64,000 bases of DNA, taken from positions 12,448,374 to 12,512,373 of the forward strand of contig NC_037274.1 in NCBI RefSeq assembly GCF_000002425.4, written 5' to 3'. This DNA is from Physcomitrium patens (lineage: Eukaryota > Streptophyta > Bryopsida > Funariales > Funariaceae). The translations under genes and the position numbers were made by a program. Below, piece by piece: positions 388-54,259 of the stretch; the first letter of the stretch is position 1, and each line of letters begins with the position of its first letter. The notes beneath the pieces are model-generated. The model did not search any database and was not told where the DNA came from. It saw only the letters and a list, made by a program, of their open reading frames with translations.

Positions 388-2361
388 TCATCTTGGTTTT
401 GATGGATGTCGTTGATGAAAAACTTTGACTTTACCTGATGCATTTGCTAGATTCCTGGATGGCTCCCATGTGCGCTCACTAATATCATATCCGCACCAAT
501 GAACAAGATATTCCAGCTTATTTCGGCGCCGCCTTGAGTCTAATATCTCTTCCACCTCAAATTCTTCATTATTATCTACTTCTATAGGAGGCGGTGGCAT
601 TTGTCTTCTTCCTTGTATATCCACTGTCTTATATGGTTCAAGAAGAGACACGTGGAATACAGGATGGATCTTCATTGACTCCGGTAGATGTAACCGATAT
701 GCAACTGGGTTGATCTGTTCAGAAACAGAAAAGGGGCCAAGCCTACGATAGTCCAATTTGTCACAAGGTCGAGTGGTCTTGATATTGCGACGAAGTAGCC
801 ATACCTTATCACCCACGTTGAGTTGTGGTTGCTCTTTACGATATACATTTGCATTTATCTTTTGTCGTTCTTGAGCTTTCTTCAACTGCGCCTTCATTAT
901 TGCATGTAACTCTGACAACCGATTTGCCATATCTTCTGCTGCAGGATTATCAACTTTTGAAAAATCAAAAGTATCAAGTCGTGGATGATAGCCATAATTG
1001 GCAAAGAAAGGTGTTTGTTGCGTGGAAGAATGTACCGTATTATTATAAGCAAACTCTGCCAATGGCAGAAGGTTTGTCCAATCATCTTGTTGGTAGTTGA
1101 TGGTACACCTTAAATACTGTTCCAAGACTTGGTTTACGCGCTCTGTTTGTCCATCAGTTTGAGGATGGAAAGCTGAAGATAGCTTTATGTCCACTTTTAA
1201 AATCTTGAAAAGAGTCCTCCAGAATCTCGACACAAATTGAGTTCCCCTATCCGATATGATATCTTTAGGTAATCCATGATAGCGATAGATATTATCAATG
1301 AAAAGCTTAGCTGTTTCTTCACCTGTGATAGATTTTGTACATGGCATAAAATGTGCCATCTTGGTGAAACGATCTACTATCACAAATATAGAATCATAAG
1401 ATCTTGAGTTTGGAAGATCTGTGATGAAATCCATAGAAACAGAAGACCATGGTTGTTCTGGTATAGGTAATGGCTGAAGAAGTCCGTAAGGTCGATGTCG
1501 AGGAATTTTTGATCTTGAACAAATATCACATGATTGTACAAAGTCTTTGACTGACTTCCACATTTGTGGCCACCAAAAATCTCTTGATATGAGTTCCAGA
1601 GTCTTATTATATCCAAAGTGCCCTGCTGCTGGAAAGTCATGACGTGCTTGAAGAACACGCAAACGTGCTTTTCCTTCTGGAACATATAGGCGTCCTTCAA
1701 AATATAATAGATTATTCTTGAACTCGAACTTAGAAGAATCATGAGACTTGGAAGAATTATTCTCGGTATCATGAACAAGAGGGTCTAAGGACATACTGGA
1801 CTGGATTTGCTTGAGAAAAGTTGAATCAACAGTCAATGTTGATTTCACTGCTCGGAGATGAAATTGCTCCGGTTTCAAGAGGACCGTTCTTTGTTGCTCA
1901 AAAGCTGCATCTCCTTCTTTTGGTGCAAAATAAGAATGTCTAGACAGGGCATCGGACAAACCTTGTTGTTTTCCTGGCCGATAAGTGATAATGAAGTCGA
2001 ATCTTGACAAAGACATACTCCAACGAGCTTGACGACGATTCAACACGCGTGCTGACATGAAATACTCGAGGTTCTTGTGATCTGTATACACAGTGACTGG
2101 ACTAGAAGCACCTTCTAGATAATGACGCCATTCTTGAAAGGAATCCACGATTGCAAGAAGTTCTTTATCGTGGATTTCATAATTGATCTCGGCTGCTGAG
2201 AATTTTCTTGAATGAAAAGCTATCGGATGAAGTTTGTCATCTGTTCCCATTTGTGATAAAACTGCACCCAAGGCAAAATCCGATGCGACTGTTTCCATAA
2301 AAAATGCCTTGGAAAAGTCAACACGATATAAAACTGGTGCAGAGACAAACCATGTCTTCAA
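388..2361 (-). pseudogene. Pol, C-terminal part: RNase H, integrase, chromodomain
   Basis: This is the downstream half of the family A polyprotein, in the same frame as the RT half and separated from it only by a TAA at 2395-2397. RNase H occupies about residues 15-130, with acidic residues D28, E67 and D94. Integrase follows with an HHCC zinc site (H241, H248, C278, C281) and a D311-D371-E407 triad; the last two residues have the usual D35E spacing. A GPF motif lies at 541-544. Residues about 600-645 form a chromodomain, with F601, W622 and Y625 at the three positions that form the methyl-lysine cage in HP1. That is the classical (group I) form, expected to read methylated histone H3 and guide integration into heterochromatin. 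It would be translated only by read-through of the stop. Confidence 0.93.
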
Positions 2362-2394
2362 GGCTTCAAATGCTGCTTCCGCTTCTTGATTCCA

Positions 2395-3951
2395 TTAGAA
2401 TTTATCTTTACTAGTCAAGCGTGTAAGTGGAGCTGCAACTCGTGAGAAGTCTTTGATGAAGATCCGATAGTAATTGGCAAATCCCAAGAAACATTGGACA
2501 TCTCTCACAGTCTTTGGAATCTTCCAATCCATGATTGTTTGGACTTTCTTAGAATCCATCATAAGACCATCATTTGAAATGATGTATCCTAAAAAGTCAA
2601 CTTGAGTAGTGTGAAATACACACTTTTCCATCTTGGCGTACAATCCTGCATCTCTGAGTTTTTGTAATACTTGACGAACATGTATTTCATGTTCTTCAAC
2701 ATTCTTAGAATAAATCAGGATATCGTCTAGGTAGCAGACGACAAAATTGTCTAAGAATTCACGAAATACATCATTCATGAGATGTTGAAAAGCAGCTAGT
2801 GCATTCGTGAGTCCAAAAGGCATGACATTATATTCAAAATGCCCGTACCTGGTTCGAAACGCAGTCTTCCATTCATCTCCTTCTTTGATCCGTACTAGAT
2901 TATATGCTCCTCTTAGATCTATTTTTGTATAGATCTTAGCTTGATTTAACTGGTCAAGGAGTCCTGATATCAAAGGTAATGGATACCTGTTCTTGATTGT
3001 GATCTTGTTGATTCCTCGATAGTCAACACACATTCGTAAAGATCCATCTTTTTTCTTTACGAATAAAATTGGAGCTCCTGCTGGAGATTTTGAATGGCGT
3101 ATGAAATTCTTCGCTAAATTCTCGTCAATATATGTCTTGAGTTCAGCCAACTCATCTTGCGATAAACTGTAAATTGGTCCAAATGGTGGCTGAGTTCCTT
3201 CCTTGAGATCGATTGAACAATCGTATGGGCGATGCTCAGGAAGAATATCTGCATTCTTTTTCTCAAAAACGTCTTGATAATCCTGATATTGACTTGGAAT
3301 GCCACTTGAAGTCTTTACGCTTTCAGAAATAGGTGCAGCATAAATAGCAAAAGTTGATCCTTCTTTTGCTGCGTGTATAAATGCTTTTGCACCTATAGGT
3401 GTGAGTTTTACTATACTAGACTCATGGTTTTTTACTTGGTTAATAGAACTGTTACTAATGCTCTGAGAAAAATCAAGTTTACGAGAAATCCAATCTATTC
3501 GAGGATTATACTTTTCTAACCATGATAAGCCTAAAATTACTGGATTAGAGGGAGATCTAATTATATTAAAAATTACGCAACTACTATGACCATTTATTAC
3601 TACATCTACAGGAAGTGTTTCGTGAGTTACATCTCCAGAAGACAACGGACGACCATCTATGACTTCTACGTGTACAGGTTTAGTTTTTTGTATTAATGAT
3701 ATTCTATGACATCTAGCAAATTCTTCATCTAAAAAACAAGATGAGGCTCCTGAATCTACCAAGGCAGAGGCTTTGTAATTATTAGGTCCTAAACGCACAT
3801 CTATTATAAAACAAGGAGATGGTTTTGAGGAGAGGATAGGACCTTTATTAGAAGTTGTACAAGATTCCAGCCGCACGGTCCCTATTGTAGCTGGACGTAC
3901 TCGTTTTCCGACATACTGTCTTCTTTGACAGCCGTACTCCTCATTTTGTAG
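2395..3951 (-). pseudogene. Pol, N-terminal part: aspartic protease and reverse transcriptase
   Basis: The frame is open from about 3951 to a TAA at 2395-2397. No ATG is needed: the frame overlaps the end of gag by about 70 nt in the -1 frame, pointing to frameshift expression. Counting from a GTG at 3876, the protease active site DSGA is at residues 41-44 and the flap-like ILGLSWL near 114-120. Reverse transcriptase spans about 225-450: the VDYRGINK block at 284-291, the TKIDLRGAYN block near 317-326, PFGLTNA near 353, and the catalytic YLDD at 382-385. All catalytic motifs are present. The single stop falls in the linker between RT and RNase H, cutting the polyprotein in two. Everything else is typical of plant and fungal chromoviruses. 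Confidence 0.93.
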
Positions 3952-4922
3952 TTACGTCGCTTCTTTGGACAATGTTGAGCAGTGTGCTTAGGTTCTCCAC
4001 AATATAAGCACAATCCTTCTTGTTGACGACAAGACTTTTCTTGCTCAGTAAGAGGTTTGAAACGTACCGCATCAATTTGCATATCCTCTACTTCCGAAGG
4101 TATGTGTTGAGGAGACGTCGGTGTTGCCATTGAATTATAGTAACGTTGAGGCCCACTTGTGTGACTCTCGGATCGAAATTCAAAAAGTCGATTGTCGCAC
4201 TTCACAGCAAAGTCAATTGCTTGACTCAATGTTTGAGGATCAGGTAAATTAAGCATCAATTTCTTTACCTCATATTGTAATCCGTAGAGAAATTGACTCA
4301 CAAGTGCAGCATCATTCCACTTGATATCAGTTGCAAGTTGTCAAAATTGCGAAGCATATAATGTTACTGATCGATTGCCTTGTCGCAAAATACGGATCTT
4401 GTTGGTTGCAACATGAATTGCATCATGTTCTCCAAACATGGATCGAAACTCCGCCAAAAAAGCCTCCAGATTATCCAATATTGGATCTCGTCGTTCAAGA
4501 AAAGATGAAAACCATGACAATGCTGAACCTGAAAGAAGTGTACCAATGAATCTTACTTGTGACCCTGGAGTTGGATAGCTCTGGGGTTGAAGTTCAATCA
4601 CTAGTTGGACCTGATTGATGAATCCTCGAAACTTGGATCTGGTACCATCAAACTTCTCGGGCAAGGCAACTCTCGGTTCTCTAACACTCGAAGGGTGTTC
4701 CATTCTGGGAGAAGGGACATGGTTTGGTGCAGATGTTGAAGCAGCCCCAATCATCTCTATATCTTCACTTCCTACCATTCTTGTTGCTCCTTGTGGTGGT
4801 AAATTGAGTTGATGCATCGCAAGCATTAACTCCCTCAATTGTTCTTGCATCTGTGCCATTGCACTCTTCATTTCAACAAGCTCTGCCATAGTAGCACTTA
4901 GAAAAGAGAAGATGTCTAACAA
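3882..4922 (-). pseudogene. Gag (capsid/nucleocapsid) with one in-frame TGA
   Basis: Gag runs from an ATG at 4922 (or the second ATG at 4889, which starts the stretch shared with decayed copies) to a TAG at 3882-3884. The N-terminal part has a Gln/Met-rich helical segment, then a retrotransposon gag domain with the ALPEKFDG block and a downstream SALSWF motif. A TGA at 4341-4343 breaks the frame once, near residue 194. The C-terminal part carries one CCHC zinc knuckle (C-X2-C-X4-H-X4-C, plus-strand positions about 3966-4012) for RNA binding. Two diverged plus-strand gag relics (10741-11330 and 40115-40900) align to its N-terminal half, supporting the start region. Confidence 0.9.
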
Positions 4923-5069
4923 CGCTCAAAACAAATAGAAGAGAGGAATTGATAACAAAGAAAATACTAAGAACAATATCAGTTTAAAAGAGGGTAATCC
5001 GCAACTTCTAATGCGCTTATGTCTTATCAAGAAAAAGGGGTAATCCACTCTTAATCAAGAAAAGACAAA

Positions 5070-15742: not shown

Positions 15743-15909
15743 TAGAATGTTATCTTCTTTTAATCTTGTTTCTTTTATAGGAAAGATTTGCTATCTTCAT
15801 CTTGATTTTGATAGATTTTGTTGATGAAAAGCTTTAACTTTCTTTGTTGCATTTATAAGATTCTTTGATGGCTCTTATGTGCATTCATTAATATTATACC
15901 TATACCTGT

Positions 15910-16700
15910 TGTAGAATAGATATTAATTTATTTTTGAAAGATATCTGTAAAATATATTAATAGTCCATATAATAGGAAATTCAAGAGGATGGATGAGTGA
16001 TTTAATTATTAAAAGTGATTAATTATAGAATTACAGTTAGAATCTGGAGAATCAAGGGAAAGTATATAGGAGTTGTAGAAGTTAATTAGAGTGCCACACT
16101 GTGAGAGTCATGAGCCGAGGGCCATCGCTGTGATAGTGTGAGCCAGGGTAAGCTTGGTGCTACTTCTTTTCTTTTGTTTGTTATTTTCTTTGAATAAGCG
16201 GATTGAGAGTTTCTGAATATTGTGAAGTGAATTATGGAATGGAAATATGATTGGTATTATTTGAGAAGAAGAAAGATTGAATGCTAAAATCTGATTATAG
16301 TTCAGTAGAGAGAATGAGTTTGTGTTTGTGTGAAACACTGTAATGTGAATGGCAGTTTTGTGTGAAGAATTCCATTGATTAGAATGAGGGTAATTGTGTA
16401 CTGAAAGCTATCACGGCACAGTATTACAATTAGAGATTATGAGGGTGAATATATTGGTGGAAATAGAAGTTATTGGTATGACTGAATTGCTGTAAGGAAG
16501 AGACCGATAAGATGAAGGAGGATATTATAGTTTTCTTATATGTTAAGATATTGGAAATAGAGATGATACATTTAGGAGGTAATTGATTGTGTGACCTTAA
16601 CATGAATGCTTAAGCAACTAGTCATTTTCCGTGTTCGAATCCCCTTATACGGATTTATTCTCATTAGATTAATTTGGAATAAGTAAAACGAGCAATCACA
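15910..16700 (+). repeat. Left LTR of the palindrome (791 bp)
   Basis: Starts TGTAGAATAGATATTAAT and ends AGCAATCACA, three bases before the primer-binding site. It matches the right LTR 22174-22964 in reverse orientation: the outermost ~180 bp differ at many sites, the rest is almost identical. It is the same LTR family as 42418-43184, 47728-48507 and 29509-30170. Confidence 0.88.
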
Positions 16701-16703
16701 TTT

Positions 16704-16721
16704 TGGCACCGTTGTCGAGGA
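16704..16721 (+). other. Primer-binding site, tRNA-Asp type
   Basis: TGGCACCGTTGTCGAGGA follows the LTR after three bases. It resembles the complement of plant tRNA-Asp 3' ends (TGGCGCCGTTGCCGGGGA) with three differences, all transitions. Confidence 0.75.
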
Positions 16722-16813
16722 GTGATAATAGCTTTGAATGTTAAGAATTAATTACCAAACCTGTGAAAAAATTGACAAAGGAAGACGATTTCAGTAGTGT
16801 TTGAAGCAAGATT

Positions 16814-18532
16814 ATGGTTAATAAGAATGAGAGCATTGCATCGAAGAAAATAAATCAGTTGAGAGAAAGACATGGAAGAGTGCAAGGAAAGAACTTGCTT
16901 AGAGAGGAGCAAGAACGTAATCTTAAAAAAAAGCATCGACAGAATTGGATTAAACCATGGTTGCAAGCTTGTCGGTGTATTCAAATATATCAAGAACTGG
17001 ACAGATTGTTAATTCTGCAGTCATATGTACCATTAGAAAAATTGCCAAGAACACTCGCGGGAAATTTTGTTAACATTCTAGTGGAAATCTAGAGGCCGTT
17101 AATTGAAAGAGAAGGAGGCGTAGAAGAATTTGGTACTCCATTGGAGATTTTTTCAGTAGGGGATATCGCTGAAACGAGCAATAGTAGCTCTTCAGATTGA
17201 CACAAATTGGTCGCCAATAAAGATAACTATATTGTATTTCAAAATCTGACATTTTTACCTGTAACTCAACCAATAAAACTAATTACAAAAAATAACAGTA
17301 AATCGAGGAGCATTGAAAGCTCGGAAATTAGAATAAGAAAAAGTAAAGATTATTTTAAAATGGAGTTTAGCAGAACAAGAAATTCAATGGCGTCAAGAGG
17401 ACCAGCCATTTCGATTGCAGTACAAATGGGTGTAGTAGGCGATCGTATGACTAGTGTCGTGCTACTACCTACTTTTTGGAGATTTATGGGTGCAGATCCC
17501 GATAAACATTTGTCTCAGTTTCTTACAACATGTGTAGCTAATAATGGCAGAACTAAAGATATTTGATTGCGATGGCTACCAACGACCTTAAAAGATACGG
17601 CATTTGAATGGTATAACTGCCAATCAATCGATCAATTTTCGAATTGGGAAGCATTGAAGAATACATTTTTATCTCATTTTTGGCCAATTGGTTTTGAGGA
17701 CCACCTTCGAGAGAGAATAATGAACAGCAAAATGATCCTAAGAGAGGCGGTGGAATCGTACTATGGCTGAGTGGCTGATATATTCAGTAAGTGGCCGAAT
17801 CACCAAATGTCAAAGACATTTATCTTATCCATATTAATCAATGGTTTGCACCTACCAGAGCTAAAAATGTTTGTAAAGGAAGCTCAACCCGTTACAGGGG
17901 CCGCATCACTTAATAGAGCCAAGGTTTGGGAGGAATACCATTATGATTAGTTTTTAATTACGGGAGCCACGATGATTCCAGTTCAAGGTAGATATCAAAA
18001 TCTGACTTGGAACAAATTAGTGGGTAGTTATCCACGGATGTTAGAAATAGGGGCCAATTCCAATACCAATATTTAGGGGCCAGTTAATGTCACCCCATTG
18101 CAAGCTATACCACCGAACATAACAACAACGTATGCTCCATATTTTTCATAACAACAATAAGCATTAACTATAGTAGAGATACCAATAATACCAGCTCTAA
18201 AAGATTCCAATGAAACCTTGTTATTGAATTTGACAAAGAAAATGGAGGAAATGGCCGTTAATATGGCCAAAGATAAAGAGAAGAGGCAAAAGCCTACCAA
18301 TACTAGGACCAATGTATGATGCAGTAATTGTAAGGGCCACGGTCATTCTATAACAGAATGCCCCTCACCCTCACAAATAATAGGTCAATGTATATTTTGC
18401 GGAGGAAAGCACCTAACAGTAAATTATTGGAATTGACAAAGACAACAACAACAATTTAGTAATCAGACCATGATCCCACCAACCCAGTGGGACAATCAAG
18501 TATACACAGGAAATACGTTTGGATAGAATAGA
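16814..18532 (+). pseudogene. Family B gag, left copy of the palindrome
   Basis: Pieces of one gag frame are separated by stops at 17090-17092, 17198-17200, 17564-17566, 17768-17770 and others; the right copy carries the same ones, so they predate the duplication or were homogenised. Recognisable blocks are PTFWRFMGADPDKHLSQF (17467-17520), LRWLPTTLKDTAFEWYN (17570-17620) and the WEALKNTFLSHFWPIGFED capsid segment (17647-17703). After 18310 come cysteine-rich zinc-knuckle remains (CSNCKGHGHS-like, then CIFCGGKHLT). It ends abruptly at 18532, where the sequence jumps to the protease-RT linker. Confidence 0.8.
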
Positions 18533-18632
18533 GTCAGCACATTAGAACCAGATTTGGGTGATTCTCATATGTCAGATAATACAATTATCCAACATATGAA
18601 AATCATCCATATCTGGTTACAACGTGCTGACT
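18533..18632. repeat. Inner inverted repeat at the fusion point of the palindrome
   Basis: About 39-47-bp arms (18533-18579 and 18586-18632) pair with roughly 85-90% identity around a very short centre. Both arms, each read outward-to-centre, encode the same VSTL-P-DHM-type linker that in the other family B element lies between protease and RT (about 33400-33450). The two element copies are therefore joined at the same point of the sequence. Confidence 0.75.
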
Positions 18633-20341
18633 CTTTTGACTACAAGATTGTTCATCCATTCGGCAATAGTATGATCCCAGTTAGTGGCATCCACGTGATG
18701 CAATATATATTCACCGGGACTTCCACATTGGTGGATTCCTACCTTTGCTGTTGAAGTGTTTTGCCCTACCTCAAATTACGATGAACCTATAGCATCGTCA
18801 TCTGTCTCAATCGATTGACTCTCGTCGTCCAATGTAAATTTTGAAGTATTTTTTTAATAGTACATAAATTTTGATTTTGGGAATTAAGATTCTCCATGAT
18901 ATTGTACTGGATACATCTGTAGAACAATTTGGTCATGGCCTTTTCTAATTGTCAATATACCTCGATCCCAATTGTTCTTAGCTTTGGCTTGATAAAGCCA
19001 AGGTCTGCCCAATAAAATGGGATATGATAATGTAGAACTCTATAATTGAAATACAATATAATCAATTTTGTATATCAATCCCGCGATTACAGTGGCAATA
19101 TTGCGTAAGATTCCCATTGGCTTTACCCGACTATGATCTGCCATTCCCAATATCAATATCATAGGTAGTAATTGCTTTAGATTCAAGTCCTCCATTCTAT
19201 ACGCATTCATTAAATTCACATTGGAGCTACCATCGACTTGTATCCCTGGAATTAAAACACCATCGATTGATACATCGATTGTTGATGCTCCTGGATCTAG
19301 ATTTAAGCTAACTTCATGAATTTCTATAGAGTGGGATCTTCGTCATATTAACGCTGAATTTAATGTAGATCGACATTCCGGTGCTACAGCCAAAAGTTGC
19401 TTCATTGTAATTGAAGGTTGAATAACATCTAAATCCTTCAGAATGTCATAGGGTTCTATATTAAGAGTAATTTCCAATGTTCTTTTGTATTTCATTGGTT
19501 TGAATTTTACTCCCTGAGGTAAGATAGTCTTCCGCCCTGGACTCAGAATTGAAACAGTAGCCAGGGCTTCCTTAGAATTTCCGCCCCCGAGAAGATCTTT
19601 CAATAGATAGGACGTTTCTCAAAACTACATAGAGATAAGAACTACTTGTAATGGAACTGAACCCTCCATAATTGGGACCTCATTGGGTTGTATCATCGAG
19701 TCAGGTCTCATATTGGATACGAAGCCTATAATAGGACCTGGATTGGATAGTCCGCTAATTGGGTCAAATTGGTCTTTTGCATCGGGATTACCCAAATGTT
19801 GAATTAATGCTTTTCCCTTTTGCTGACTTGGGATAAGAACAGCTTGGACACATTCCACCTAATTTATCAAAGAATCTTGAGGACCTCGATTTATCTCCTC
19901 AAATTTTCCTTGGCTTTGGATCTGCTGATCTCGATTATTAACATTGAACGGAGCATTACATTGCTGATACTTATGCCCCGATTGCTTGTAATTTCTACAA
20001 ACTGGTACATAATTGTCATTGGCTCTGGGATTGAGACATTCATTGGCATAATGAGCAATTTGTTTGCAACGAAAACAACAAAGTGGTCTTCTTGCACCTC
20101 CATCATGCATATTGGGTGCCTCCATCAATATATACCTACTAGGCTTGTTCCATGTAGGGTTAGAAAATGATCCTAGTTGTCACGTTGGTATTAAGAGAAC
20201 TTAGTTTGATGACGTTGGTGGAGCATATTACTGATACCTCTACTGCTTCTTACCGTAGTTCTAGGAGTTCGATGCAGATCCATGATTAAAATTAGAACTT
20301 TGAAAGTTATTAAATGCTCGATTTTGTCAATTAAATCGATT
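18633..20341 (-). pseudogene. Family B zinc knuckle and protease, present only in the right copy
   Basis: Continuation of the right-hand gag on the minus strand. From 20128 a double zinc-knuckle region reads CFRCKQIAHYANEC, then a second Cys-rich block with VPVCRNYKQSGH. The acidic linker follows (19858-19625), then a domain with TLEITLNIEPYDILKDL (19520-19450). The retroviral-type protease core is at about 19230-18980, with VDGSSNVNLM around the catalytic Asp and a terminal SYPILLG-like motif near 19010. Stops interrupt it in several places. The left copy lacks this 1.7 kb. Family B proteases at 32770-33050 and 44560-44900 align with it. Confidence 0.75.
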
Positions 20342-22060
20342 TCTATTCTATCCAAACGTATTTCCTGTGTATACTTGATTGTCCCACTGGGTTGGTGGGA
20401 TCATGGTCTGATTACTAAATTGTTGTTGTTGTCTTTGTCAATTCCAATAATTTACTGTTAGGTGCTTTCCTCCGCAAAATATACATTGACCTATTATTTG
20501 TGAGGGTGAGGGGCATTCTGTTATAGAATGACCGTGGCCCTTACAATTACTGCATCATACATTGGTCCTAGTATTGGTAGGCTTTTGCCTCTTCTCTTTA
20601 TCTTTGGCCATATTAACGGCCATTTCCTCCATTTTCTTTGTCAAATTCAATAACAAGGTTTCATTGGAATCTTTTAGAGCTGGTATTATTGGTATCTCTA
20701 CTATAGTTAATGCTTATTGTTGATATGAAAAATATGGAGCATACGTTGTTGTTATGTTCGGTGGTATAGCTTGCAATGGGGTGACATTAACTGGCCCCTA
20801 AATATTGGTATTGGAATTGGCCCCTATTTCTAACATCCGTGGATAACTACCCACTAATTTGTTCCAAGTCAGATTTTGATATCTACCTTGAACTGGAATC
20901 ATCGTGGCTCCCGTAATTAAAAACTAATCATAATGGTATTCCTCCCAAACCTTGGCTCTATTAAGTGATGCGGCCCCTGTAACGGGTTGAGCTTCCTTTA
21001 CAAACATTTTTAGCTCTGGTAGGTGCAAACCATTGATTAATATGGATAAGATAAATGTCTTTGACATTTGGTGATTCGGCCACTTACTGAATATATCAGC
21101 CACTCAGCCATAGTACGATTCCACCGCCTCTCTTAGGATCATTTTGCTGTTCATTATTCTCTCTCGAAGGTGGTCCTCAAAACCAATTGGCCAAAAATGA
21201 GATAAAAATGTATTCTTCAATGCTTCCCAATTCGAAAATTGATCGACTGATTGGCAGTTATACCATTCAAATGCCGTATCTTTTAAGGTCGTTGGTAGCC
21301 ATCGCAATCAAATATCTTTAGTTCTGCCATTATTAGCTACACATGTTGTAAGAAACTGAGACAAATGTTTATCGGGATCTGCACCCATAAATCTCCAAAA
21401 AGTAGGTAGTAGCACGACACTAGTCATATGATCGCCTACTACACCCATTTGTACTGCAATCGAAATGGCTGGTCCTCTTGACGCCATTGAATTTCTTGTT
21501 TTGCTAAACTCCATTTTAAAATAATCTTTATTTTTCCTTATTCTAATTTCCGAGCTTTCAATGCTCCTCGATTTACTGTTATTTTTTGTAATTAGTTTTA
21601 TTGGTTGAGTTACAGGTAAAAATGTCAGATTTTGAAATACAATATAGTTATCTTTATTGGCGACCAATTTGTGTCAATCTGAAGAGCTACTATTGCTCGT
21701 TTCAGCGATATCCCCTACTGAAAAAATCTCCAATGGAGTACCAAATTCTTCTACGCCTCCTTCTCTTTCAATTAACGGCCTCTAGATTTCCACTAGAATG
21801 TTAACAAAATTTCCCGCGAGTGTTCTTGGCAATTTTTCTAATGGTACATATGACTGCAGAATTAACAATCTGTCCAGTTCTTGATATATTTGAATACACC
21901 GACAAGCTTGCAACCATGGTTTAATCCAATTCTGTCGATGCTTTTTTTTAAGATTACGTTCTTGCTCCTCTCTAAGCAAGTTCTTTCCTTGCACTCTTCC
22001 ATGTCTTTCTCTCAACTGATTTATTTTCTTCGATGCAATGCTCTCATTTTTATTAACCAT
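20342..22060 (-). pseudogene. Family B gag, right copy of the palindrome
   Basis: Mirror image of the left gag (16814-18532), over 99% identical by eye. The few protein differences include Arg to Lys in the FSRTRN block, Ser to Asn just before it, Arg to His in GDRM and Ile to Val in CQSIDQ; the underlying base changes are transitions. It shares the left copy's stops. It continues without a break into the zinc-knuckle and protease region, so this is the more complete copy. Confidence 0.8.
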
Positions 22061-22152
22061 AATCTTGCTTCAAACACTACTGAAATCGTCTTCCTTTGTC
22101 AATTTTTTCACAGGTTTGGTAATTAATTCTTAACATTCAAAGCTATTATCAC

Positions 22153-22170
22153 TCCCCGACAACGGTGCCA
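22153..22170 (-). other. Primer-binding site of the right copy, tRNA-Asp type
   Basis: On the minus strand TGGCACCGTTGTCGGGGA, one base closer to the tRNA-Asp complement than the left copy. It is three bases inside the right LTR. Confidence 0.75.
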
Positions 22171-22173
22171 AAA

Positions 22174-22964
22174 TGTGATTGCTCGTTTTACTTATTCCAA
22201 ATTAATCTAATGAGAATAAATCCGTATAAGGGGATTCGAACACGGAAAATGACTAGTTGCTTAAGCATTCATGTTAAGGTCACACAATCAATTACCTCCT
22301 AAATGTATCATCTCTATTTCCAATATCTTAACATATAAGAAAACTATAATATCCTCCTTCATCTTATCGGTCTCTTCCTTACAGCAATTCAGTCATACCA
22401 ATAACTTCTATTTCCACCAATATATTCACCCTCATAATCTCTAATTGTAATACTGTGCCGTGATAGCTTTCAGTACACAATTACCCTCATTCTAATCAAT
22501 GGAATTCTTCACACAAAACTGCCATTCACATTACAGTGTTTCACACAAACACAAACTCATTCTCTCTACTGAACTATAATCAGATTTTAGCATTCAATCT
22601 TTCTTCTTCTCAAATAATACCAATCATATTTCCATTCCATAATTCACTTCACAATATTCAGAAACTCTCAATCCGCTTATTCAAAGAAAATAACAAACAA
22701 AAGAAAAGAAGTAGCACCAAGCTTACCCTGGCTCACACTATCACAGCGATGGCCCTCGGCTCATGACTCTCACAGTGTGGCACTCTAATTAACTTCTACA
22801 ACTCCTACATACTTTTTCTTGATTCTTCAAATTGTAATCGTAATTCTATAATTAGTTGTTTTTAATAACTAAATCACTCATCTGTCCTCTTGAATTTCCT
22901 ATTATATGGACTATTAGTATATTTTACCAATATCTTTCAAAAATGAATTAATATCTATTCTACA
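22174..22964 (-). repeat. Right LTR of the palindrome (791 bp)
   Basis: Reverse-oriented partner of 15910-16700. Its outer end reads, on the plus strand, ATATCTATTCTACA and is followed directly by family A sequence that continues the part left of 15910. Confidence 0.88.
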
Positions 22965-25900
22965 CTAATGAATAAGATATTTGAATTTATTTCGGCAATG
23001 CTATGTGTCTATGATTTCTTTCACCTCAAATTCTTGATTATTATCTAGTTCAATGGGAAGAGGTGGCATTTGTCTTTTTTCCAAAGTATTCACCATCTTA
23101 TATGACTCATAAAGGGATACTTGAAATACAGAGTAGATCTTTATAGACTTTGGTAGATGTAATTGATAAACAACAGGATTGATTTGTTCACAAATAGAAA
23201 AAAGTTTTAGTCTATGATAGTCTAACTTATCACAAAGATGAGTATTCTTGATATTGTGACAAAGTAATCATACCTTGTCACCTAAGTTGAAATATGGTTG
23301 TTCTTTGCAATGGGCATCTATATTCATCTTTTGCCATCTTTGAGCTTCTTTTAATTATATCTTCATTGTTGCATGTAGCTCTGAGAAATGATTTGCTAAA
23401 TCTTCCACCATAGAATTATCAATTTTTGAAAAGTCAAAAGTATCAAGTCGTGGATGATAACTATATTTAACAAAGAAAGGTGTTTATTAAGTAGAAGAAT
23501 GTACTGAGTTATTGTATGCAAACTCTTCTAATAGCAAAAGAGTTGTCCAATCATCTTGATGATAGTTGATGGTATACCTAAAATATTGCTCCAAAATTTA
23601 ATTCACTTGTTTTGTTTTTCCATCTTTATAAGGATAAAAAGCCGAAAAAATCTTTATATCCACCTTTAGAATCTTAAATAAGGTTCTTTAAAATCTTGAT
23701 ATAAATTGAGTCTCCTTATTTGATATAATATCCTTTGACAATCCATGATAGCGATAGATATTGTCAATAAAAAGCTTAGTTATTTCTTCACTTGAAATAA
23801 ATTTTGTACATAGTAAAAAATGTGCCATTTTGCTGAAGCGATCTACGATTATGAATATAGAATCATGTGAACCTCATACTGAAAGTTCTATAATAAAATC
23901 CATAGAAATAGAAGACTGTAGTTGTTTTAGAATATGTAATAGTTGAAGCAATCCATAAGGTCAATGGCGAGGAGTTTTGGATCTTAAACAAATATCACAT
24001 GATTGTACAAAGTTTTTGACTACCTTCCACATTTGAAGCTATCAAAAATCTCTTGATATTAGCTCCAAAGTCTTATTATATCCAAAAAGTCCAGTTTCTA
24101 AAAAATCATGATGAGCTTGAAGGACACGTAATTGTGCCTTAACTTTTGAAATATATCAGCAATCTTTGAAATATAGTAGGTTTTTCTTGAATTCAAACTT
24201 TGAAGTATCATAGGACTTAGAAGAAGTATTCTTGATATCATGAATAAGAGGTTCAGAAGACATACTTAATTGAATTTACTTGACAAAGGTTGAATCAACA
24301 GTCAATGTTGATTTTATTGCTTGAAGATGAAAATGCTCAAGCTTCAAGAGGATTATTCTTTGTTAATTAAAAGTTGCATCTTCTTCTTTTGATATAAGAT
24401 AAGGACATTTAGAAAGGACATCTAATAGACCTTTTTGTTTTTCGGATTGATAAGTGATCTTGAAATTGAATTTGAATATAGACATACTCCAATTGATTTG
24501 ACAATAATTCAAAACACGTGTTGACATGAAGTACTCGAGGTTCTTATGATCCTTATATATAATGACTAGACTTCAAGTGCCTTCTACATAATGACACCAT
24601 TCTTGAAATGAATCCACAATTGTAAGAAGCTCTTTGTTATGGATCTCATAATTAATCTTCGTTATTGAAATTTTTTGGAATAGAATGCTACTAGGTGGAG
24701 TTTGTCATTTGTTTTGATTTGTGACAACACAACATCGATAGGAAAGTCTGACGCACCTGTTTCCACAAAAAATACCTCAAAAAAGTTGACACAATACAAG
24801 ATTGGTGCACATATAAATTTCTTCTTTAAAGCATCAAATGATGCTTTTATTTCTTTATTCCACTGAAGTTTATCTTTACAAGTCAAATGTGTAAGTAGAG
24901 CTACAACTTGAAAAAAGTTCTTCATGAAGATTCGATAGTAATTAGTAAAGCCTAAAAAGTATTGAACATCTTATACGGTTCTTGGAATCTTTCAATCTAT
25001 GATAGTTTGGACCTTCTTGAGATCCATCATAAAGCCTTCCTTAGAAATAATGTACTTTAAAAAGTCAACTTGAGTAGAGTGGAATACGTACTTTTTCAAC
25101 TTGGCATATAATCCTACATCTCTAAGTTTTTGTAACATATGACAAACATGAAGTTCATGTGATTTTGTGTTCTTAGAATAGATTAGAATGTTGTCTAAAT
25201 AGCAAATGAAAAAATTATCTAGAAACTTACAAAAAACATCATTCCTAAGATATTAAAAAGTGCTTGATGTATTTGAGAGTCCAAAAGGCATGACATTATA
25301 TTCAAAATGTCCATACCTAATTCAAAAAATAATCTTCTATTCATCTCCTTCTTTGATATGAACTAAGTTCTATGCTCTTTGTAGATCTATTTTAGTATAG
25401 ATTTTTGCTTGATTGAGTTGGCCATAAAGTCGTGAAATCAAAGGCAAAGGGTACCTATTTTTTATGGTGATCTCATTGAGTCCTTGATAATCTACACACA
25501 TCCACAAAGATCTATCTTTCTTCTTTACAAATAAGATAGGAGCTTCGATCGGGGATTCAAAATGGCATTTACAGTTTTTTGCCAAGTTTTTATCAATATA
25601 TTCCTTTAATATAGCCAACTTATTTTGCAATAAGCTATAGATTGGTCCAAATGGTGGTTGAGCTCTTTCTTGCAAATCAATTGAAAAATCATAAGGTCAA
25701 TGCTATGAGAGAATATCTGCATTTTTCTTTTAAAAAAAGTCTTAAAATTCTTCATATTATCTAAGAATATCACTTGATATTTTTTTACCATTAGAAATAG
25801 GCATAGCATATAGAGCAAAAGATGATCTTTCTTTTGCAGCATGTATGAAAGCTCTCGAACCTATCAATAAAGGTTTGGAAGTACTAAACTATTGTACTTC

Positions 25901-29508: not shown

Positions 29509-30170
29509 TGTAGAATAGGTAAATAAACTTTGTAATAAGTTACTGGTTGGTTATTGATAACCTTGAGAATTAGACTGATGGATAGGCAATTTAGTTGGTA
29601 ATAGTAGGTTGTTAGTGGAATAAATGGTTAAGAATTCAAAGGGTCATAACCTTTGGAATCCGCTGGCCGATGGATCATCTTTTTTCGTAGGATAAATAGG
29701 TTGAGAAAAGAGAAATCAAAGCCAGATTGAGAGTCGTAAGTTGAGAGCCAGATTGAGAGTTGTAAGCTGAGAGCTGGATAAGGAGTCATAAGCCGAGAGC
29801 CAGACTGAGAGTCGTAAGCCCAGAACCAAATTTTGAGAGTCATAAGTCGAGAGCCAGACTTTGAGAGTCGTAAGCCAAGGTAAGCTTGGTGCTACTTCTT
29901 TATTTTCTTTATTATTTGCTTATGAAGAATGGTAATTGAAAGAAGTATTATTGAATTAATAATTATAGAATAGAATATGGGTTGAATCAAGACGGAAGTA
30001 GTAAGCCTCCATGTTTTGTAGTTTGATAATTGATTTCAGATAGCCAGAGTATAGTTAATTGTGATACTAACAGACTCAATTCATATAACCAGTCATTTCC
30101 CATGTTTAAATCCACTAATATTAGTTCAATTACTTTGGTCTACTGAAGCTTGAACGTAACAAAAATAACA
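29509..30170 (+). repeat. 5' LTR (662 bp) with six 26-28-bp tandem repeats
   Basis: Starts TGTAGAATAGG and ends AAAAATAACA before the primer-binding site. Six tandem copies of a GCCAGA-TGAGAGTCGTAAG-type unit lie at 29721-29880. The 3' LTR has only two, which accounts for most of the length difference (662 versus 553 bp). Confidence 0.85.
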
Positions 30171-30173
30171 TTT

Positions 30174-30191
30174 TGGCACCGCTGCCGGGGA
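30174..30191 (+). other. Primer-binding site, tRNA-Asp type
   Basis: TGGCACCGCTGCCGGGGA, two transitions away from the complement of plant tRNA-Asp 3' ends, three bases after the LTR. Confidence 0.78.
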
Positions 30192-30339
30192 AATGATAAC
30201 AATATAAAATGTTAGAAATTGATTGTATGAGAGATGAAATTATATATTGAATGAAAAAGTGAAAAAACTAGTTTTAGGATTAGAAACATGTGAGTTATAA
30301 TTCAAGGCAATATTGATTTTGTAAAGAAGAATGAAAGAT

Positions 30340-32100
30340 TATGAGTGATAATCACAGAGGGGAAGGATTATCAAAGATATAATCAACAAGAAAAAGAAAG
30401 ATAGGAGCGATTACGCATAAAAAATAGCCTACAGGAACCACAAAAAAGAATTGTAGGTCAAAGAAAAACCAAAGGAAAAAAAAACTAAAAATTCAAATAG
30501 TAAGGAAACCAGTGATAACACCAATGGCCGCGGGAGTGCCACAAGTACCAATTGTAGTACTAATGGGAGTAGTAAGAGACCGAACTACAAAAGTGGCACC
30601 ATTACCTATTTTTAGTGGTGGCCGGGCTCTGATCTCAATTACTATATATCTCAATTCTTGACAGCTTACATGGCAAAAAATTGTAGAACTGAAGATATTT
30701 GGTTGAGATGGTTGCCAGCAACTTTAAAAGATATAACTTTTGAATAGTATATTCGACAACCAATGGGTAGATTTCTTATTTGGGAGGCCTTAAGGAATGC
30801 CTTCTTAATCCATTTTAGACTAATTGGATTTGAAGATCGGCTTTGAGAAAGTTTTATGAATAGCAAGATGTTTGCGGAAGAATCTGTAGAGTCTTATCAT
30901 GGCCGGATCGTGGATATACTTTATACATGGTCAAATAATCAAATGTCAAATGCGTTTATATTGTCGATATTAATTAACGGTTTGCATCCACCAGAATTCA
31001 AAATGTTTGTAAAAGAGGCTCGACCAGCTATGGTAGAAGCATTGTTGGCACAAGTAAAGGTATGGAAAGAATGTCATTATGACCAATTATTAATAGTGGG
31101 AGCCACGATGATTCCAAGTTCAGAAAGCCAACAAATACAATCGAGAAATGTGTCGATGGATAATTATCTACGAATGGCTGCCTCCAATATGAAGAATGTT
31201 ATGTTGCAAGAACCAATTATTCCTACACCACTCCAAGCAATAGCGCCAATAACAATGACACCTTATTTTATATCGCCAACCTATCAAAAATTGGAGTTGT
31301 TTATAAATGTGACTATTAAAGATCTAAATGAAGCCTTGTTATTAAATCTAACAAAAAAAATAGAAGAATTGGCCATGAATTTGGCTAAAGATAAGGAGAA
31401 ATGACATAAGCTTTCTAATACGAGACCTAATATATGGTGTAATAATTGTAAGGGACAAGGTCATTTTGATACGGAATGTCTATCACCTAGATAAACGGGT
31501 ATTCAATGTACATTTTGTGGACGAAAGCACCCTACCCAAAATTGCTGGCATTTACAAAGGCAACAATAATTCAGTAATCAGACCATGATTCTACCGACTC
31601 AGTGGGAAGTCAGTGAAGTTAAAATGAAAAATATGTATGGATGGAATGGAAATCGATCTAATCGACAAAATCAAACATCCAATCACTTTCAAATTTCCAA
31701 TTTTAATCAAGGGTCTGCATCAAACTTCAAGAACTACGGGAAGGAGCAGCAGAGGTATCAGCAATATGCTCCACTGGCGTCATCGAACCAAGTATCCTCC
31801 GTACCAACGAGACAACTTGGATCATTTTCTAACCCTACATGGAACAAGCCTAGTAGATATATACCAGTGGAGACACCCAATATGCCAGATGGAGGTACAA
31901 GAAGACCACTTCATTGTTTTCGTTGTAGACAAAGTGGTCATTATACTAGTGAATGTTCCAATCCCAAAGCTAGTGATGATTATGCACCAGTATGTGCAAA
32001 TTGCAAGCAGTCATGATATACTTATCAGCAACGTAATGCTCTGTTCAATTTCAATAATCAAGATCAATAGATCCAAAGCCAAGGAACAATGGAGGAGATA
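30340..32100 (+). pseudogene. Family B gag
   Basis: The frame is broken early (about 30340-30850) but then open over 30856-31404. It contains EESVESYHGRIVDILYTWSNNQMSNAF-like capsid sequence, aligned with the gags of the palindrome and of the 42-48-kb element. The zinc-knuckle region is at 31430-32010: first C-NCKGQGHFDTEC-like, then CFRCRQSGHYTSEC (31915-31956), then VCANCKQS before a TGA. A linker frame with QRDSP and repeated DPI/DPN motifs follows (32089-32373). RNA-binding and capsid roles are as in other Ty3 gags; the stops make it inactive. Confidence 0.8.
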
Positions 32101-32539
32101 AATCAAGGTCCTCAAGATTCACCAGTTCATCAGGTAGAAGTAGTCCAAGCTGTCCATATAAGAAGTCAGCAAAAGGAAAAAGGACCAATTCAATATTTGG
32201 GTGATCTTGAAGCGAAGGACCAATTAGACCCAATTATGGGGACATCCAATCCAGATCCTAATATAGGCTCCTTACTCAGTATAAGACCAGAATCGGTTGT
32301 GCACTCCAATGAGGTACCAATTACGGAGGCTTTGGTTCCATGTCGAGTTGTTTCGTTCTCTACACAGTTTTGAAAAATGTCCTTTCCGTTGAAAGATCCT
32401 CTCAAAGGAGTGAATTCCAAAGAACCAATATCAGCCCAATTGGAAGGACAATCTTATTGTTGAAAGAACCGATTTTACAGGCTCCGTCAAATTCAGTTCC
32501 AAAGCTTTATCAGTTTCTAATATAGAGAAAATCAATTTA

Positions 32540-33420
32540 CTTGTGTCGGTGTCTAGGACTGTGAAGAAGAAATGGACATTGAAAATTACCACTAATATAG
32601 AACCATATAATATTCTAAAAGATTTGGGTACAATACAGCCCATGATCTCTATGAAGCAATTATTGGCGATAGCACCTGAGTGCCGAATTATCTTGAATTC
32701 TTCATTAATTTATTGTAGAACTCAAAATAAAGAAATCCAAGAAGTAAGTTTGAATCCTGATCCTGGTGCACATACAATTGATGTCTCAATTGATTGGATG
32801 TTATTATCAGGAGTGCAAGTAGATTGAAGATCTAGTGTAAATCTTATACATGATGCTACAATGGAGGAGTTGGGTTTGGATCAATTATTGCCTACTACAG
32901 TGGTTTTGAGAATGGCTGACTCCAGTCGAATTAAACCTATGGATGTTTTACGAAGTATTGATACAATAATTATGGAGATTACCTATAAAATTGATGATAT
33001 TATTTTTCGATTGCAAAGCTCTATATTGTCATATCCAATTTTATTGGGGTGACCATGGTTGTATCAAGCTAAAGCTCGAAATGACTAGGACCGTGGTACA
33101 TTGACAATTGAGAAAGGTAATTATAAAATTGTGCTTCAAATGTACTCTGTCTAATATCACGGAGAAACTCAAGTGGCCAGTTCAAAATTCATGTCGGATT
33201 GTAAAGATGAGTTTATAGAAGAAGAAATGGGTGCACGTGCCATAATTTATGTTGATACAAGACAAGTTGTCAAGCACACTAGAATGAGCTACCATTGTAG
33301 GGGACTGGGAGAGTATTTAGTTCTTCCAGCTGTTATTGACAATTCAGTTCATATGATTGGATATTGGATGAATAGATGAGATGTTAATCACGTTAGTACT
33401 ATGGAACTGGAGTTGAAAAG
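32540..33420 (+). pseudogene. Family B protease and pre-RT linker
   Basis: Begins with the TLKITTNIEPYNILKDLG domain (32573-32630) also seen in the other family B copies. The protease core follows: SGVQVD, one stop where Gly-Ser would be expected, SSVNLIHDATMEELGLDQLLP, then VVLRMADSSRIKPMDVLRSI and SYPILLG at 33030-33050. After two stops the linker MSYHCRGLGEYLVLP (33284-33330) and VSTMELELKSSHVSNFM (33395-33445) precede RT. The catalytic region carries a stop, so the enzyme is dead. Confidence 0.75.
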
Positions 33421-33599
33421 TTCTCATGTGTCAAATTTTATGAAAGATTTTGGAATTGAGTAGAACATTAGTCCAGGGACTCTTGAAATTCCATGATGTC
33501 AACTAATTAATTTAGGTACAAGGAAGGCTCTCCAAATCATTCAAATTTATGATGGTATAAAAGGCAAAGAAAAAGAAATTTGGATAGATTACTTTTTAA

Positions 33600-34488
33600 T
33601 GTATAAAACTGCTTTTGCATGGTCATATGCCGATTTGAAAGCAATTCCAGCTGAAGTTTGTGAGCATCGAATTATATTGGAAGAGAACGCTAGATCAGTG
33701 CGCCAAAGATAACAACGACTTAATCCAAAATACTCACTTCTGATAAAAGAAGAACTGGATAAACTCTTAGAAGTTAGATTTATCTATCCAATTCCTTTCA
33801 ATGAATGGATTTTAACAATTTTTATAGTACCGAAAAAGAATGAAAAAGTTTGCATGTGTCAAGATTTTTGAAAATTAAATGAGGCTACTAAGAAGGATTA
33901 TTTTTCTTTATCATTCACGGATAATATATTACATGCTGTAGCTACACATGAATGTTATTCATTTTTTGATGGATTCTCCAGTTATAATTAAGTTAAGATT
34001 GTAAAAGAAGACTAGTTAAAAACTACTTTTACTATGGATTGAGGGACCTTTGTCTATAAGATTATGTCATTTGGGCTTTGTAATACACCAACTACATTTC
34101 AAAGGATAATGATGCAAGCATTCCTAGATTATCTATGAATTTCAATAGAAATATTTCTAGATGATTTTTATATATTTAGTACAAGAGCGAGGCATTTAGA
34201 ATATCTCGGTCAATGTTTGAATCAATGTGCCAAATATGGAATTTCTTTAAATTTAAAAAATTACCAATTTGGTGTACCTTTTGATAAACTATTGGATCAT
34301 ATAGTTTCAATGGCAGGTATTACTACAGATCCAGATAAAATAAAGTTTATAGTAGAATTAAAGAAACCAGATACTATTATAGGTGTTTGAGTATTTTTCG
34401 GCCATGTCAGTTATTATCGGTGATTTATCTATCTATTCGCACTTATATACCTTTTCTTGATAAATCTCTTGAAGAAACCACTAACCGA
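33600..34488 (+). pseudogene. Family B reverse transcriptase
   Basis: RT blocks appear in order: FAWSYADLKAIPAEVCEH (about 33615-33668), a finger block VPKKNEKVCMCQDF (33829-33870), KLNEATKKDYFSL (33874-33912), FFDGFSSYN (33963-33990), IMSFGLCNTPTTFQRIM (34063-34113) and the catalytic FLDDF (34151-34165). Then SMAGITTDPDKIKFI and FFGHVSYYR follow, ending with LLKKPLT at 34470-34487. Several stops are present. The active-site Asp pair is kept. The sequence resumes in RNase H after the insertion, at 35635. Confidence 0.8.
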
Positions 34489-35628
34489 TGTCGTGTTGTA
34501 ACAAAAGTATACTGTGAAAATATAAAGAAAGGGGACTTTTATTAATGTTCAGTTACCTCGAATATTGGAAGCAACGACCGATTCCAGTGCCAATATTCAA
34601 GGACCAGTTCAGACACCCCATCACAATCGGTCAGGGCATACTTACCAGTAACGAAATGCTCCGTTTAAGTCTAATAGTGGGAGTCAATAGAATCGAAAGG
34701 ACTAAATTGATGACTAAGTGAGCCTGACGCGAAGGACCAATTTGACCCAATTACGGGAACATCCAAGTCTTACTACGGGCCTCTTAGCCAATATGAGACC
34801 TGATTTGGTCGGGCGACTCAATGTGGTCCCGATTACGGGGGTTTCGATTCTGTTTCAGCCTTTCCTGTTCTCTGTGCTGTTTCAGGGAACGTTGTTTCCA
34901 GAAAAAGAACCTTTTAAAAGGCAAAAAATGGAGGAGAAAGCTCTGACAACGGAGCCAATTTCGGATCCAAGACGGAAGATTGAAGAAATTCAGAGGCTAG
35001 GGTTTGAAAGAGGAGAGAATTAAGGTTAAAGGAGAAGATAGGTTAAGAAATAAAAGAGGATAGAATCAGGGTTTTAAAGGGGGGAGAGCTAGCTTCATGC
35101 TTCAGAGGGGGAAAAAAAAAGACAGAGAATTAGGGTTTTTTTTTTCATAGGGTTTTGAGAAGATTGAGGTAATCGTTGCTGAAAGTCAATGTTGTACTGA
35201 TGAATCGGGGTTTTAATGAAGTAGGTGTGATAACTCTTGGCTGTTTTATAAAATCGAAGTTATGTCTGTGATTGAAGAATTAAAAGGGTGTCTATAGGAT
35301 TGAATATGCGGAATGAATGAAAAGTTTTTGGGTTAATCTAACAAGACAATCAGTGGATACAAGGTTGTGAGTATAAAGTGGTATTGAAGATTAGCGGATT
35401 GGATTGTTCGGGGTTCTCTGTAACGTCTAGAGACCTACCGGCTAGGGCAAAAAGGATTTCGGCGAGCAGTCGAAGGACATCCGTATAGATTTATGGTATA
35501 TTCTTGTAATCGTTTATATTTCAACAGTCAAAAATTGATAAACTGCTTGAATATTAGCGAATCTCTATACTACCTCCTACAGCCAGATGTCAGGCACGTT
35601 CTCAAGCAAGATAGCACGTAATATGACA
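34489..35628. mobile_element. 1.1-kb composite insertion with a captured family B piece
   Basis: Splits the RT/RNase H junction; ACCGATG occurs at both edges (34484-34490 and 35628-35634). The ends are TGTCGTGTTG and, reversed, TGTCATATTACGTGC. The right end (35580-35628) closely resembles the outer end of the family C repeats (50283-50320 and 50427-50480). The left half (about 34560-34930) is a second copy of the family B gag-protease linker, with fewer transitions than the host element (open frame 34718-35023). The right half (35030-35580) is a GC-richer non-coding segment with several GGGTTTTAG/AGGGTTT motifs. This looks like a non-autonomous element that picked up retrotransposon sequence. 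Confidence 0.55.
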
Positions 35629-35634
35629 CCGATG

Positions 35635-35800
35635 GGACCAATCCATTTTGGATAAAGGAATGTATTATTGCATTTGAAACATTAAAACAAAAATTGGTTT
35701 TAGCACCAATATTGGTGGCATCTTATTGGACAAAACCATTCCAAGTTTATGTGGATGCATCTAACGCCATTGATTAAAGAAGCCAACGCTGCTACGTCTT
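35635..35800 (+). pseudogene. Start of family B RNase H, then deletion
   Basis: ECIIAFETLKQKLVLAPILVA (35660-35720) and FQVYVDASNAI (35740-35773) are the beginning of Ty3 RNase H, with its first catalytic Asp. The frame then stops, and the 3' end of the element follows within 90 bp. The rest of RNase H and all of integrase are missing. Confidence 0.75.
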
Positions 35801-35845
35801 TATAATTTAAGGCTAAATAATGTTTGTGAGGACGTTGCACAATTA

Positions 35846-35857
35846 GAAATGGGACTA
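35846..35857 (+). other. Polypurine tract of the family B element
   Basis: AGAAATGGGACTA directly precedes the 3' LTR start TGTAGAATATG, in the usual position of the plus-strand primer. Confidence 0.6.
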
Positions 35858-36410
35858 TGTAGAATATGTAAATAAATTTTGTGGTAAGTTACTGGTTGGT
35901 TATTAACAACCTTGAGAATTAGACTTATGGTTAGGCAGTTTAATTGATAACATTAGTTTGTTAGTGAAATAAATGGTTAAGAATTCAAAGGGTCATAATC
36001 TTTGGAATCCATTGGCTGATGAATCATCTTCTTGGTATGATAAAGAGGTTGAAGATAGAGAGACGAGGGCCAGACTATGAGAGTCGTAAGCCGAGAGCCA
36101 GACATTGAGAGTCGTAAGCCGGGATAAGCTGGTGCTACCTCTTTATTTTTTTTATTATTTGCTTATGAAGAATTGTGATTGAGAGAAGTATTGTTGATTT
36201 AATAATCATAGAATGGATTATGGGTTGAATTAAGATGGAAGTAGTAAGCCTCAATATTTTGTAGTTTGATAATTGATTTCAGATAGCCATAATATAGTCA
36301 ATTGTAACTCTAACAGATCCAATTTATATAACCAATCTTTCCTTGTGTTCGAACCCGTATCTATTAGTTCAATTGCTTTGGTCTACTGAAACTTGAATGC
36401 AGCGAGAACA
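35858..36410 (+). repeat. 3' LTR (553 bp) with two tandem repeats
   Basis: Aligned with 29509-30170 over its full length apart from the tandem-repeat block (36068-36120), which has two copies instead of six. Ends near AGCGAGAACA. Confidence 0.82.
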
Positions 36411-42412: not shown

Positions 42413-42417
42413 TGCAA

Positions 42418-47724: not shown

Positions 47725-47727
47725 AAA

Positions 47728-54250: not shown

Positions 54251-54259
54251 TATGAGATA

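What the first reader, a model, noticed from the sequence alone, without database searches (positions are those of the whole stretch)
15910..22964. Palindromic retrotransposon: two family B copies fused tail-to-tail with the same LTR terminus at both outer ends
A 7,055-bp unit carries LTR-PBS-gag on both strands as arms of 2,623 bp that pair with no net indel (paired positions always sum to 38874). A normal element has two direct LTRs; this has two inverted ones and no RT core, RNase H or integrase. The family A host sequence continues collinearly on either side, and both flanking 5-mers align with the same CCAAT of the intact copy. So the palindrome seems to have entered as one piece with TG...CA ends made from two U3 termini. 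A strand switch during reverse transcription, followed by integration of the hairpin-derived duplex, would explain this; two independent insertions would not explain the fusion at homologous positions.
Basis: partly seen in the sequence, partly recalled or inferred. Interest (0 to 1): 0.82.

Follow-up and report, generated by a model that had tools for sequence, protein, structure and literature searches.

The report
Old palindromic retrotransposon, arms recently recopied
A dead jumping gene here sits in the genome as a large mirror-image pair that seems to have jumped in as one piece long ago, and most of one half looks as if it was much more recently copied over from the other.

Summary
The palindrome is real: 15910-18532 and 20342-22964 pair over 2623 bp without gaps, with 27 mismatches. 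But it is not evenly matched: 19 of 27 mismatches lie in the outermost 157 bp (12.1%), 8 in the other 2466 bp (0.32%). The true turnaround is at 18582, inside an 18%-diverged inner hairpin; the left copy lacks 1710 bp that the right copy has, with an AGA microhomology at the break. Outer and inner parts have aged like the two other family B insertions here (LTR pairs 6.6% and 14.6% different). The middle shares 10 of 11 in-frame stops between arms, so it was copied after decay. Best reading: a palindromic cDNA with a U3 terminus at each end inserted once into family A (exactly 5 extra host bases), aged, and later had most of its arms made alike by gene conversion, perhaps together with the 1.7-kb loss. 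The target-duplication letters agree at only 2 of 5 positions. Strand switch and conversion are inferred; the host genome could not be searched.

The parts
15905..15909 (.). left flank 5-mer CCTGT, putative target-site duplication (decayed)
   Evidence: exactly 5 extra bases against family A copy near 480; 2 of 5 letters agree with the right flank
15910..16700 (+). left LTR, starting at the U3 terminus TGTAGAATAG
   Evidence: inner end read
15910..16066 (+). left outer segment, 12.1% different from its partner 22808-22964
   Evidence: 19 mismatches in 157 bp
16067..18532 (+). left homogenised tract (most of LTR, PBS, gag-like frame), 0.32% different from 20342-22807
   Evidence: 8 mismatches in 2466 bp; 10 of 11 in-frame stops shared
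16704..16721 (+). left primer-binding site (tRNA-Asp type recalled, not tested)
   Evidence: differs from the right one at one base of 18
18533..18631 (.). inner mirror sequence, 9 mismatches in 49 pairs; turnaround at 18582 with a 3-base loop; BLAST-extended hairpin 18527-18637
   Evidence: fold -33.2 kcal/mol, z -11.8
18632..20341 (-). stretch present only in the right copy (1710 bp); its part 18882-20341 is 24.0% from the near-complete B copy
20342..22807 (-). right homogenised tract
22153..22170 (-). right primer-binding site
22174..22964 (-). right LTR, U3 terminus at the outer end
   Evidence: inner end by mirror sum 38874
22808..22964 (-). right outer segment, 12.1% different from its partner
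22965..22969 (.). right flank 5-mer CTAAT, putative target-site duplication (decayed)

Best explanation
A family B Ty3/gypsy-like cDNA was made as a palindrome: DNA synthesis ran from the U3 end through LTR, PBS and the gag- and protease-like part to about element position 4382, then turned back on itself at a short mirror sequence (GATAAT-NNN-ATTATC) and copied the same stretch the other way [inferred]. The duplex had a U3 terminus at each end and integrase inserted it into a family A element with a 5-base stagger [ends and 5-base excess shown; enzyme inferred]. Both arms then decayed separately to about 12-18% [shown for outer 157 bp and inner 49 pairs]. Much later (middle divergence is about 2% of that of those parts) the middle 2466 bp were made alike again by arm-to-arm gene conversion [inferred from shared decay]. 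The left arm also lost 1710 bp at an AGA microhomology [gap and AGA shown; loss from the left rather than gain in the right follows from the stretch being family B sequence]. One repair event could have done both: a break in the left arm, copying from the right arm, and rejoining at the microhomology [inferred; order not resolvable].
For: Three-zone divergence 12.1% / 0.32% / 18.4% (Fisher P 3e-18 for outer against middle, 4e-12 for inner against middle, 0.34 for outer against inner). The near-complete B copy's LTR pair differs evenly (2-10 per 100 columns, 51 of 770 in all), so the outer U3 is no hotspot of the needed size; another B copy's LTRs differ at 79 of 540. 14 of 19 outer mismatches can be polarised: 6 changed in the left arm, 8 in the right; the other 5 show both states in the reference LTR pair. 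At 15990/91, 16016/17 and 18573/74 one arm has TG where the other has CA (contexts), as expected if one methylated CpG decayed separately in each arm; the near-complete copy has CG at the first (one LTR) and third of these. 10 of 11 in-frame stops are common to both arms, in a frame with 11 stops against 46 in each other frame, so the copied template was already dead. The frame in the arms (25.1%) and the right-only stretch (24.0%) are equally far from the near-complete copy. Family B likeness continues at protein level up to the turnaround (by eye).
Against: The target-duplication letters agree at only 2 of 5 positions; at 13.6% divergence three or more differences in five has a chance of 0.02. 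The outer mismatches are ordered: left-derived at 36-96, right-derived from 106 on but for one left-derived at 148, which simple decay does not predict. The middle keeps more CpG (51 in 2466 bp of the left arm, observed/expected 0.64) than the outer ends (0 and 1 in 157 bp), as if less decayed; but the right-only stretch, which had no partner to be converted by, is at the same level (0.66), and counts in the outer ends are tiny. With no C/G bias, simulated decay of 8% gives 2-8 stops (5-95%), fewer than the 10 shared. No second assembly, read set or further genomic copy could be examined, so conversion rests on one sequence, and no donor direction can be shown.
Confidence: 0.7

Rival explanations
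1. Recent palindromic reverse-transcription product of an already dead element, with outer and inner parts taken from a second, diverged co-packaged RNA.
For: Reverse transcription can join different templates (PMC1950507, whole text in two parts). Shared stops would then be inherited from a dead template.
Against: Snap-back copying should make the sequence next to the turnaround identical, yet it is the most diverged part (9 of 49). Several switches at unrelated places are needed. Polarised changes are split 6 and 8 as for separate decay.
Confidence: 0.1
2. Two different cDNAs each joined one U3 end to opposite strands of one target, and their free inner ends were joined by end joining; conversion followed.
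For: Gives U3 at both ends and a 5-base stagger without snap-back; allows initial arm differences (inference).
Against: The mirror centre has only a 3-base loop between homologous positions, which end joining of two broken cDNAs would hit only by chance.
Confidence: 0.12
3. Assembly error: the left arm's middle was filled with right-arm sequence or with another allele, with a false join at AGA.
For: The young tract ends exactly where the 1710-bp gap begins; one assembled sequence only.
Against: The middles still differ at 8 places, one of which makes a private stop; the palindrome itself is supported independently by the diverged outer and inner parts.
Confidence: 0.08
4. Two independent family B insertions in opposite orientation followed by a deletion.
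For: Old, separately decayed ends; poor match of the two flanking 5-mers.
Against: Host family A is collinear with only 5 extra bases; two insertions within one 5-base site would be required, and the mirror centre would be chance.
Confidence: 0.03

Closest known systems
Template-switch complex LTR retrotransposon insertions in grasses (Sabot and Schulman 2007, PMC1950507; whole text read in two parts)
   Same: One insertion with a 5-bp target duplication explained by an abnormal reverse-transcription product with integrase-usable ends
   Different: Those carry three LTRs and two complete cores; the text read describes no inverted product. Here the copies are inverted and share U3 at both outer ends
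Arm-to-arm gene conversion in human Y palindrome P6 (PMC3723533, abstract and outline seen) and willow W palindromes (PMC7023750, passages seen)
   Same: Inverted arms far more alike than their age; P6 tract mean 2068 bp, willow tract 3 kb, comparable with 2466 bp here
   Different: Those are large chromosomal palindromes with genes; here the palindrome is one dead retrotransposon insertion. Willow evidence used a second species, which is lacking here
DIRS-1 elements (PMC5633606, passages seen)
   Same: LTRs in inverted orientation
   Different: DIRS-1 encodes a tyrosine recombinase; here the inversion arises from a whole duplicated arm in an otherwise direct-LTR family
[quoted passage not shown]
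   Same: Two instances of LTR pairs in opposite directions in one genome
   Different: They were removed by hand from the candidate list as not elements; the passage gives no structure, so likeness is untested
Mu killer of maize (PMC3440606, abstract start seen in search listing)
   Same: Inverted duplication of a transposable element that could be read into a long hairpin RNA
   Different: Different element; no transcription or silencing evidence here

Membership tests
Ty3/gypsy-like LTR retrotransposon (family B) | direct LTRs in the family | tested here: met
   near-complete copy with LTRs 47726-48508 and 42416-43185, 91.8% identical in the BLAST alignment
Ty3/gypsy-like LTR retrotransposon (family B) | 5-bp target duplication | tested here: met
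   near-complete copy flanked by TGCAA on both sides
Ty3/gypsy-like LTR retrotransposon (family B) | gypsy-type RT | tested here: met
   copy at 29.5-36.4 kb matches family A pol, 30% over 221 aa, E 9e-24; no such match in the palindrome or in the 42-48 kb copy, so met in 1 of 3 copies
Ty3/gypsy-like LTR retrotransposon (family B) | RNase H and integrase | tested here: inconclusive
   family A's second pol ORF matched none of the 3 B copies at E 0.01
Ty3/gypsy-like LTR retrotransposon (family B) | recognisable gag or protease Pfam domain | tested here: not met
   0 of 6 fragments matched Pfam at E 0.01; fragments are short and decayed, so this says little
Single-event integrase insertion | collinear host with one short target duplication | tested here: met
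   exactly 5 extra bases; length only
Single-event integrase insertion | identical duplication letters | tested here: not met
   CCTGT and CTAAT agree at 2 of 5; decay is a possible reason
Gene-converted palindrome | sharp drop of arm divergence in an internal tract | tested here: met
Gene-converted palindrome | concerted change against an orthologous palindrome in a relative | not testable with these tools
   genome searches unanswered
DIRS-like element | inverted LTRs family-wide | tested here: not met
   the near-complete B copy has direct LTRs and a 5-bp duplication
DIRS-like element | tyrosine recombinase | not tested
   no search made for one

The most novel reading that the evidence does not exclude
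An LTR-retrotransposon integrase inserted a cDNA with two U3 ends (no U5 end), giving a palindromic insertion that has been partly kept alike by arm-to-arm gene conversion, with homogenisation and a 1.7-kb loss in one repair event. If copies with other turnarounds exist, this would be an overlooked class of insertions that annotation requiring direct LTRs discards, and arm identity would mislead their dating.
Probability: 0.5. Interest if true: 0.65.

Novelty: new variant of a known kind. Interest (0 to 1): 0.5.

Why it matters
Annotation of LTR retrotransposons expects direct LTRs and would miss or discard such insertions (one paper removed two opposite-LTR cases by hand, PMC4600303, passage). 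If one U3-U3 palindrome integrated normally, integrase in the cell does not need one U3 and one U5 end. The contrast between old ends and a young middle gives a natural test of gene conversion between arms of a single transposon, and a warning that arm or LTR identity can be far younger than the insertion.

Tried and rejected
Mutation hotspot in outer U3: rejected, because the near-complete copy's LTRs differ evenly. Inner hairpin as a native family feature: not favoured; the inner hairpin matched nothing else in the window but the arms, and the other two B copies seem to continue past the homologous point in coding-like sequence (by eye). Fusion at 18532/20342: rejected, as these are the edges of a 1710-bp gap. 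DIRS-like element: rejected for the family's direct LTRs and 5-bp duplication. Pfam gave nothing for 6 fragments, 3 of them from the palindrome. Protein relatives of a family B gag-like piece: 0 of 66 candidates at E 0.001. Exact 33-base U3 pattern in viral contigs: 0. The Helitron-like ORF search, made partly to place the host, gave 28 hits from mixed sources and no host name. Hairpin-RNA silencing was considered; no expression data, so kept only as an analogy.
Full report
The observation. Self-comparison of the window gives an inverted pair 15910-18532 / 20342-22964, 2623 bp, 98.97% identical, no gaps, with 27 mismatches. Both outer ends are the U3 start of the family B LTR: TGTAGAATAG on the left and its complement on the right. 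The near-complete family B copy at 42.4-48.5 kb has direct LTRs and the 5-base duplication TGCAA on both sides. Family A's first pol ORF finds RT in the B copy at 29.5-36.4 kb and nothing in the palindrome; its second ORF matches only itself, so RNase H and integrase are weakly tested. The labels gag and protease rest on position and on reading by eye; Pfam matched 0 of 6 fragments.

The insertion. When the two host flanks are joined and aligned with the family A copy at 340-640, the host is collinear and the excess at the junction is exactly five bases. This is what a single integration with a 5-base stagger leaves. The letters are poor: CCTGT and CTAAT agree at 2 of 5 positions and match CCAAT at 3 and 4. 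At the divergence of the old parts (13.6%) that has a chance of 0.02, so the duplication rests on its length and position, not on its letters.

Three zones. 19 of 27 mismatches lie in the outermost 157 bp (12.1%), 8 in the other 2466 bp (0.32%). Inside the spacer lies a second, smaller mirror sequence (111 bp, 81%) centred on 18582 with a 3-base loop; it folds as single-stranded DNA at -33.2 kcal/mol against a mean of -7.8 for 200 shuffles. Beyond the arm ends its 49 pairs have 9 mismatches (18.4%). Outer and inner zones do not differ detectably from each other (Fisher P 0.34), while each differs from the middle (3e-18 and 4e-12). Read together, the left copy runs 15910-18532, skips 1710 bp, and runs on to 18582; the right copy runs 22964 to 18582 without a skip. 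Three bases, AGA, at the skip match both sides. Family B likeness at protein level continues to the turnaround (by eye).

Age. The LTR pair of the near-complete B copy differs at 51 of 770 aligned positions (6.6%), evenly along its length, and that of the 29.5-36.4 kb copy at 79 of 540 (14.6%). The old zones of the palindrome are of this order. Polarised on the near-complete copy's two LTRs, 6 outer changes are in the left arm, 8 in the right, and 5 sites show both states in the reference pair. At three places one arm reads TG and the other CA (15990, 16016, 18573), the pattern of one methylated CpG lost separately in each arm; the near-complete copy has CG at the first, in one of its LTRs, and at the third. 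That methylation is the cause is inference. Two results do not fit neatly. The left-derived changes lie at 36-96 and, but for one at 148, the right-derived ones at 106-157. And CpG is nearly absent from the outer ends (0 and 1) but observed/expected is 0.64 in the middle, as if the middle were less decayed; however the right-only stretch, which had no partner, has 0.66.

The middle is young and was copied when dead. In the gag-like frame (11 stops from element position 895 on, against 46 in each other frame) 10 of 11 stops are common to both arms. A simulation of random decay gives a mean of about 6-9 stops at 6-8% change per lineage if C and G change 3-6 times as often as A and T, and 4-5 (at 8%: 2-8 in the 5-95% range) with no such bias. 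So the shared stops fit an element that had already aged to about the extent of its outer ends, given a C/G bias that was assumed, not measured. The frame in the arms and the stretch found only in the right copy are equally far from the near-complete copy (25.1% and 24.0%). Hence, on this reading, the middle of one arm was replaced by a copy of the other after most of the decay: arm-to-arm gene conversion. The corrected divergence of the middle is 2% of that of the old zones.

Order of events. The young tract ends where the 1710-bp skip begins. Either the loss came first and limited conversion, or it came later and cut the tract, or one repair event made both. The data do not separate these; the single-event version is the most economical.

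Origin. A snap-back or strand switch in cDNA synthesis at GATAAT-NNN-ATTATC explains the mirror centre, the missing pol and U3 at both ends. Joining of two cDNAs explains the ends but not the tight centre. A palindrome made recently from two RNA templates cannot easily explain why the sequence next to the turnaround is the most diverged part.

Literature. Ten searches of the held library were made; four listings were capped (10 of 24, 20 of 116, 20 of 41, 12 of 19), and one search found nothing. Judged by titles and abstract starts, none of the listed papers describes an integrated palindromic LTR retrotransposon with U3 at both ends. [quoted passage not shown] The other ten were not opened, and most subscription papers are not held. 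Nearest are template-switch complexes (PMC1950507, whole text), gene-converted palindromes (PMC3723533 abstract; PMC7023750 passages), DIRS-1 (PMC5633606 passages) and Mu killer (PMC3440606, listing).

Limits. Family A's relatives carry RT, integrase and chromodomain Pfam accessions (names recalled); the closest come from unnamed sources (best 120 of 6091 listed). Everything about conversion rests on one assembled sequence.

Noticed in passing
window 1-4925: Family A copy with long ORFs (388-2394 and 2395-3951, minus strand) and a 99% identical relative, P0001, from an unnamed source; possibly recently active (inference).
   Followed up: partly
window 15929-16066 / 22808-22945: Outer mismatches are ordered along the U3: left-derived first, then right-derived but for one.
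   Followed up: no
window 48778-54260: Cluster of inverted and direct copies at about 66-82% identity, some also matching 5.6-6.8 kb.
   Followed up: no
window 61594-62502: ORF some of whose relatives carry PF14214 (Helitron-like, name recalled); closest full-length ones at 86-89% from unnamed sources.
   Followed up: partly
window 29509-36397: Third family B copy with LTRs 14.6% diverged and an RT-like stretch.
   Followed up: partly
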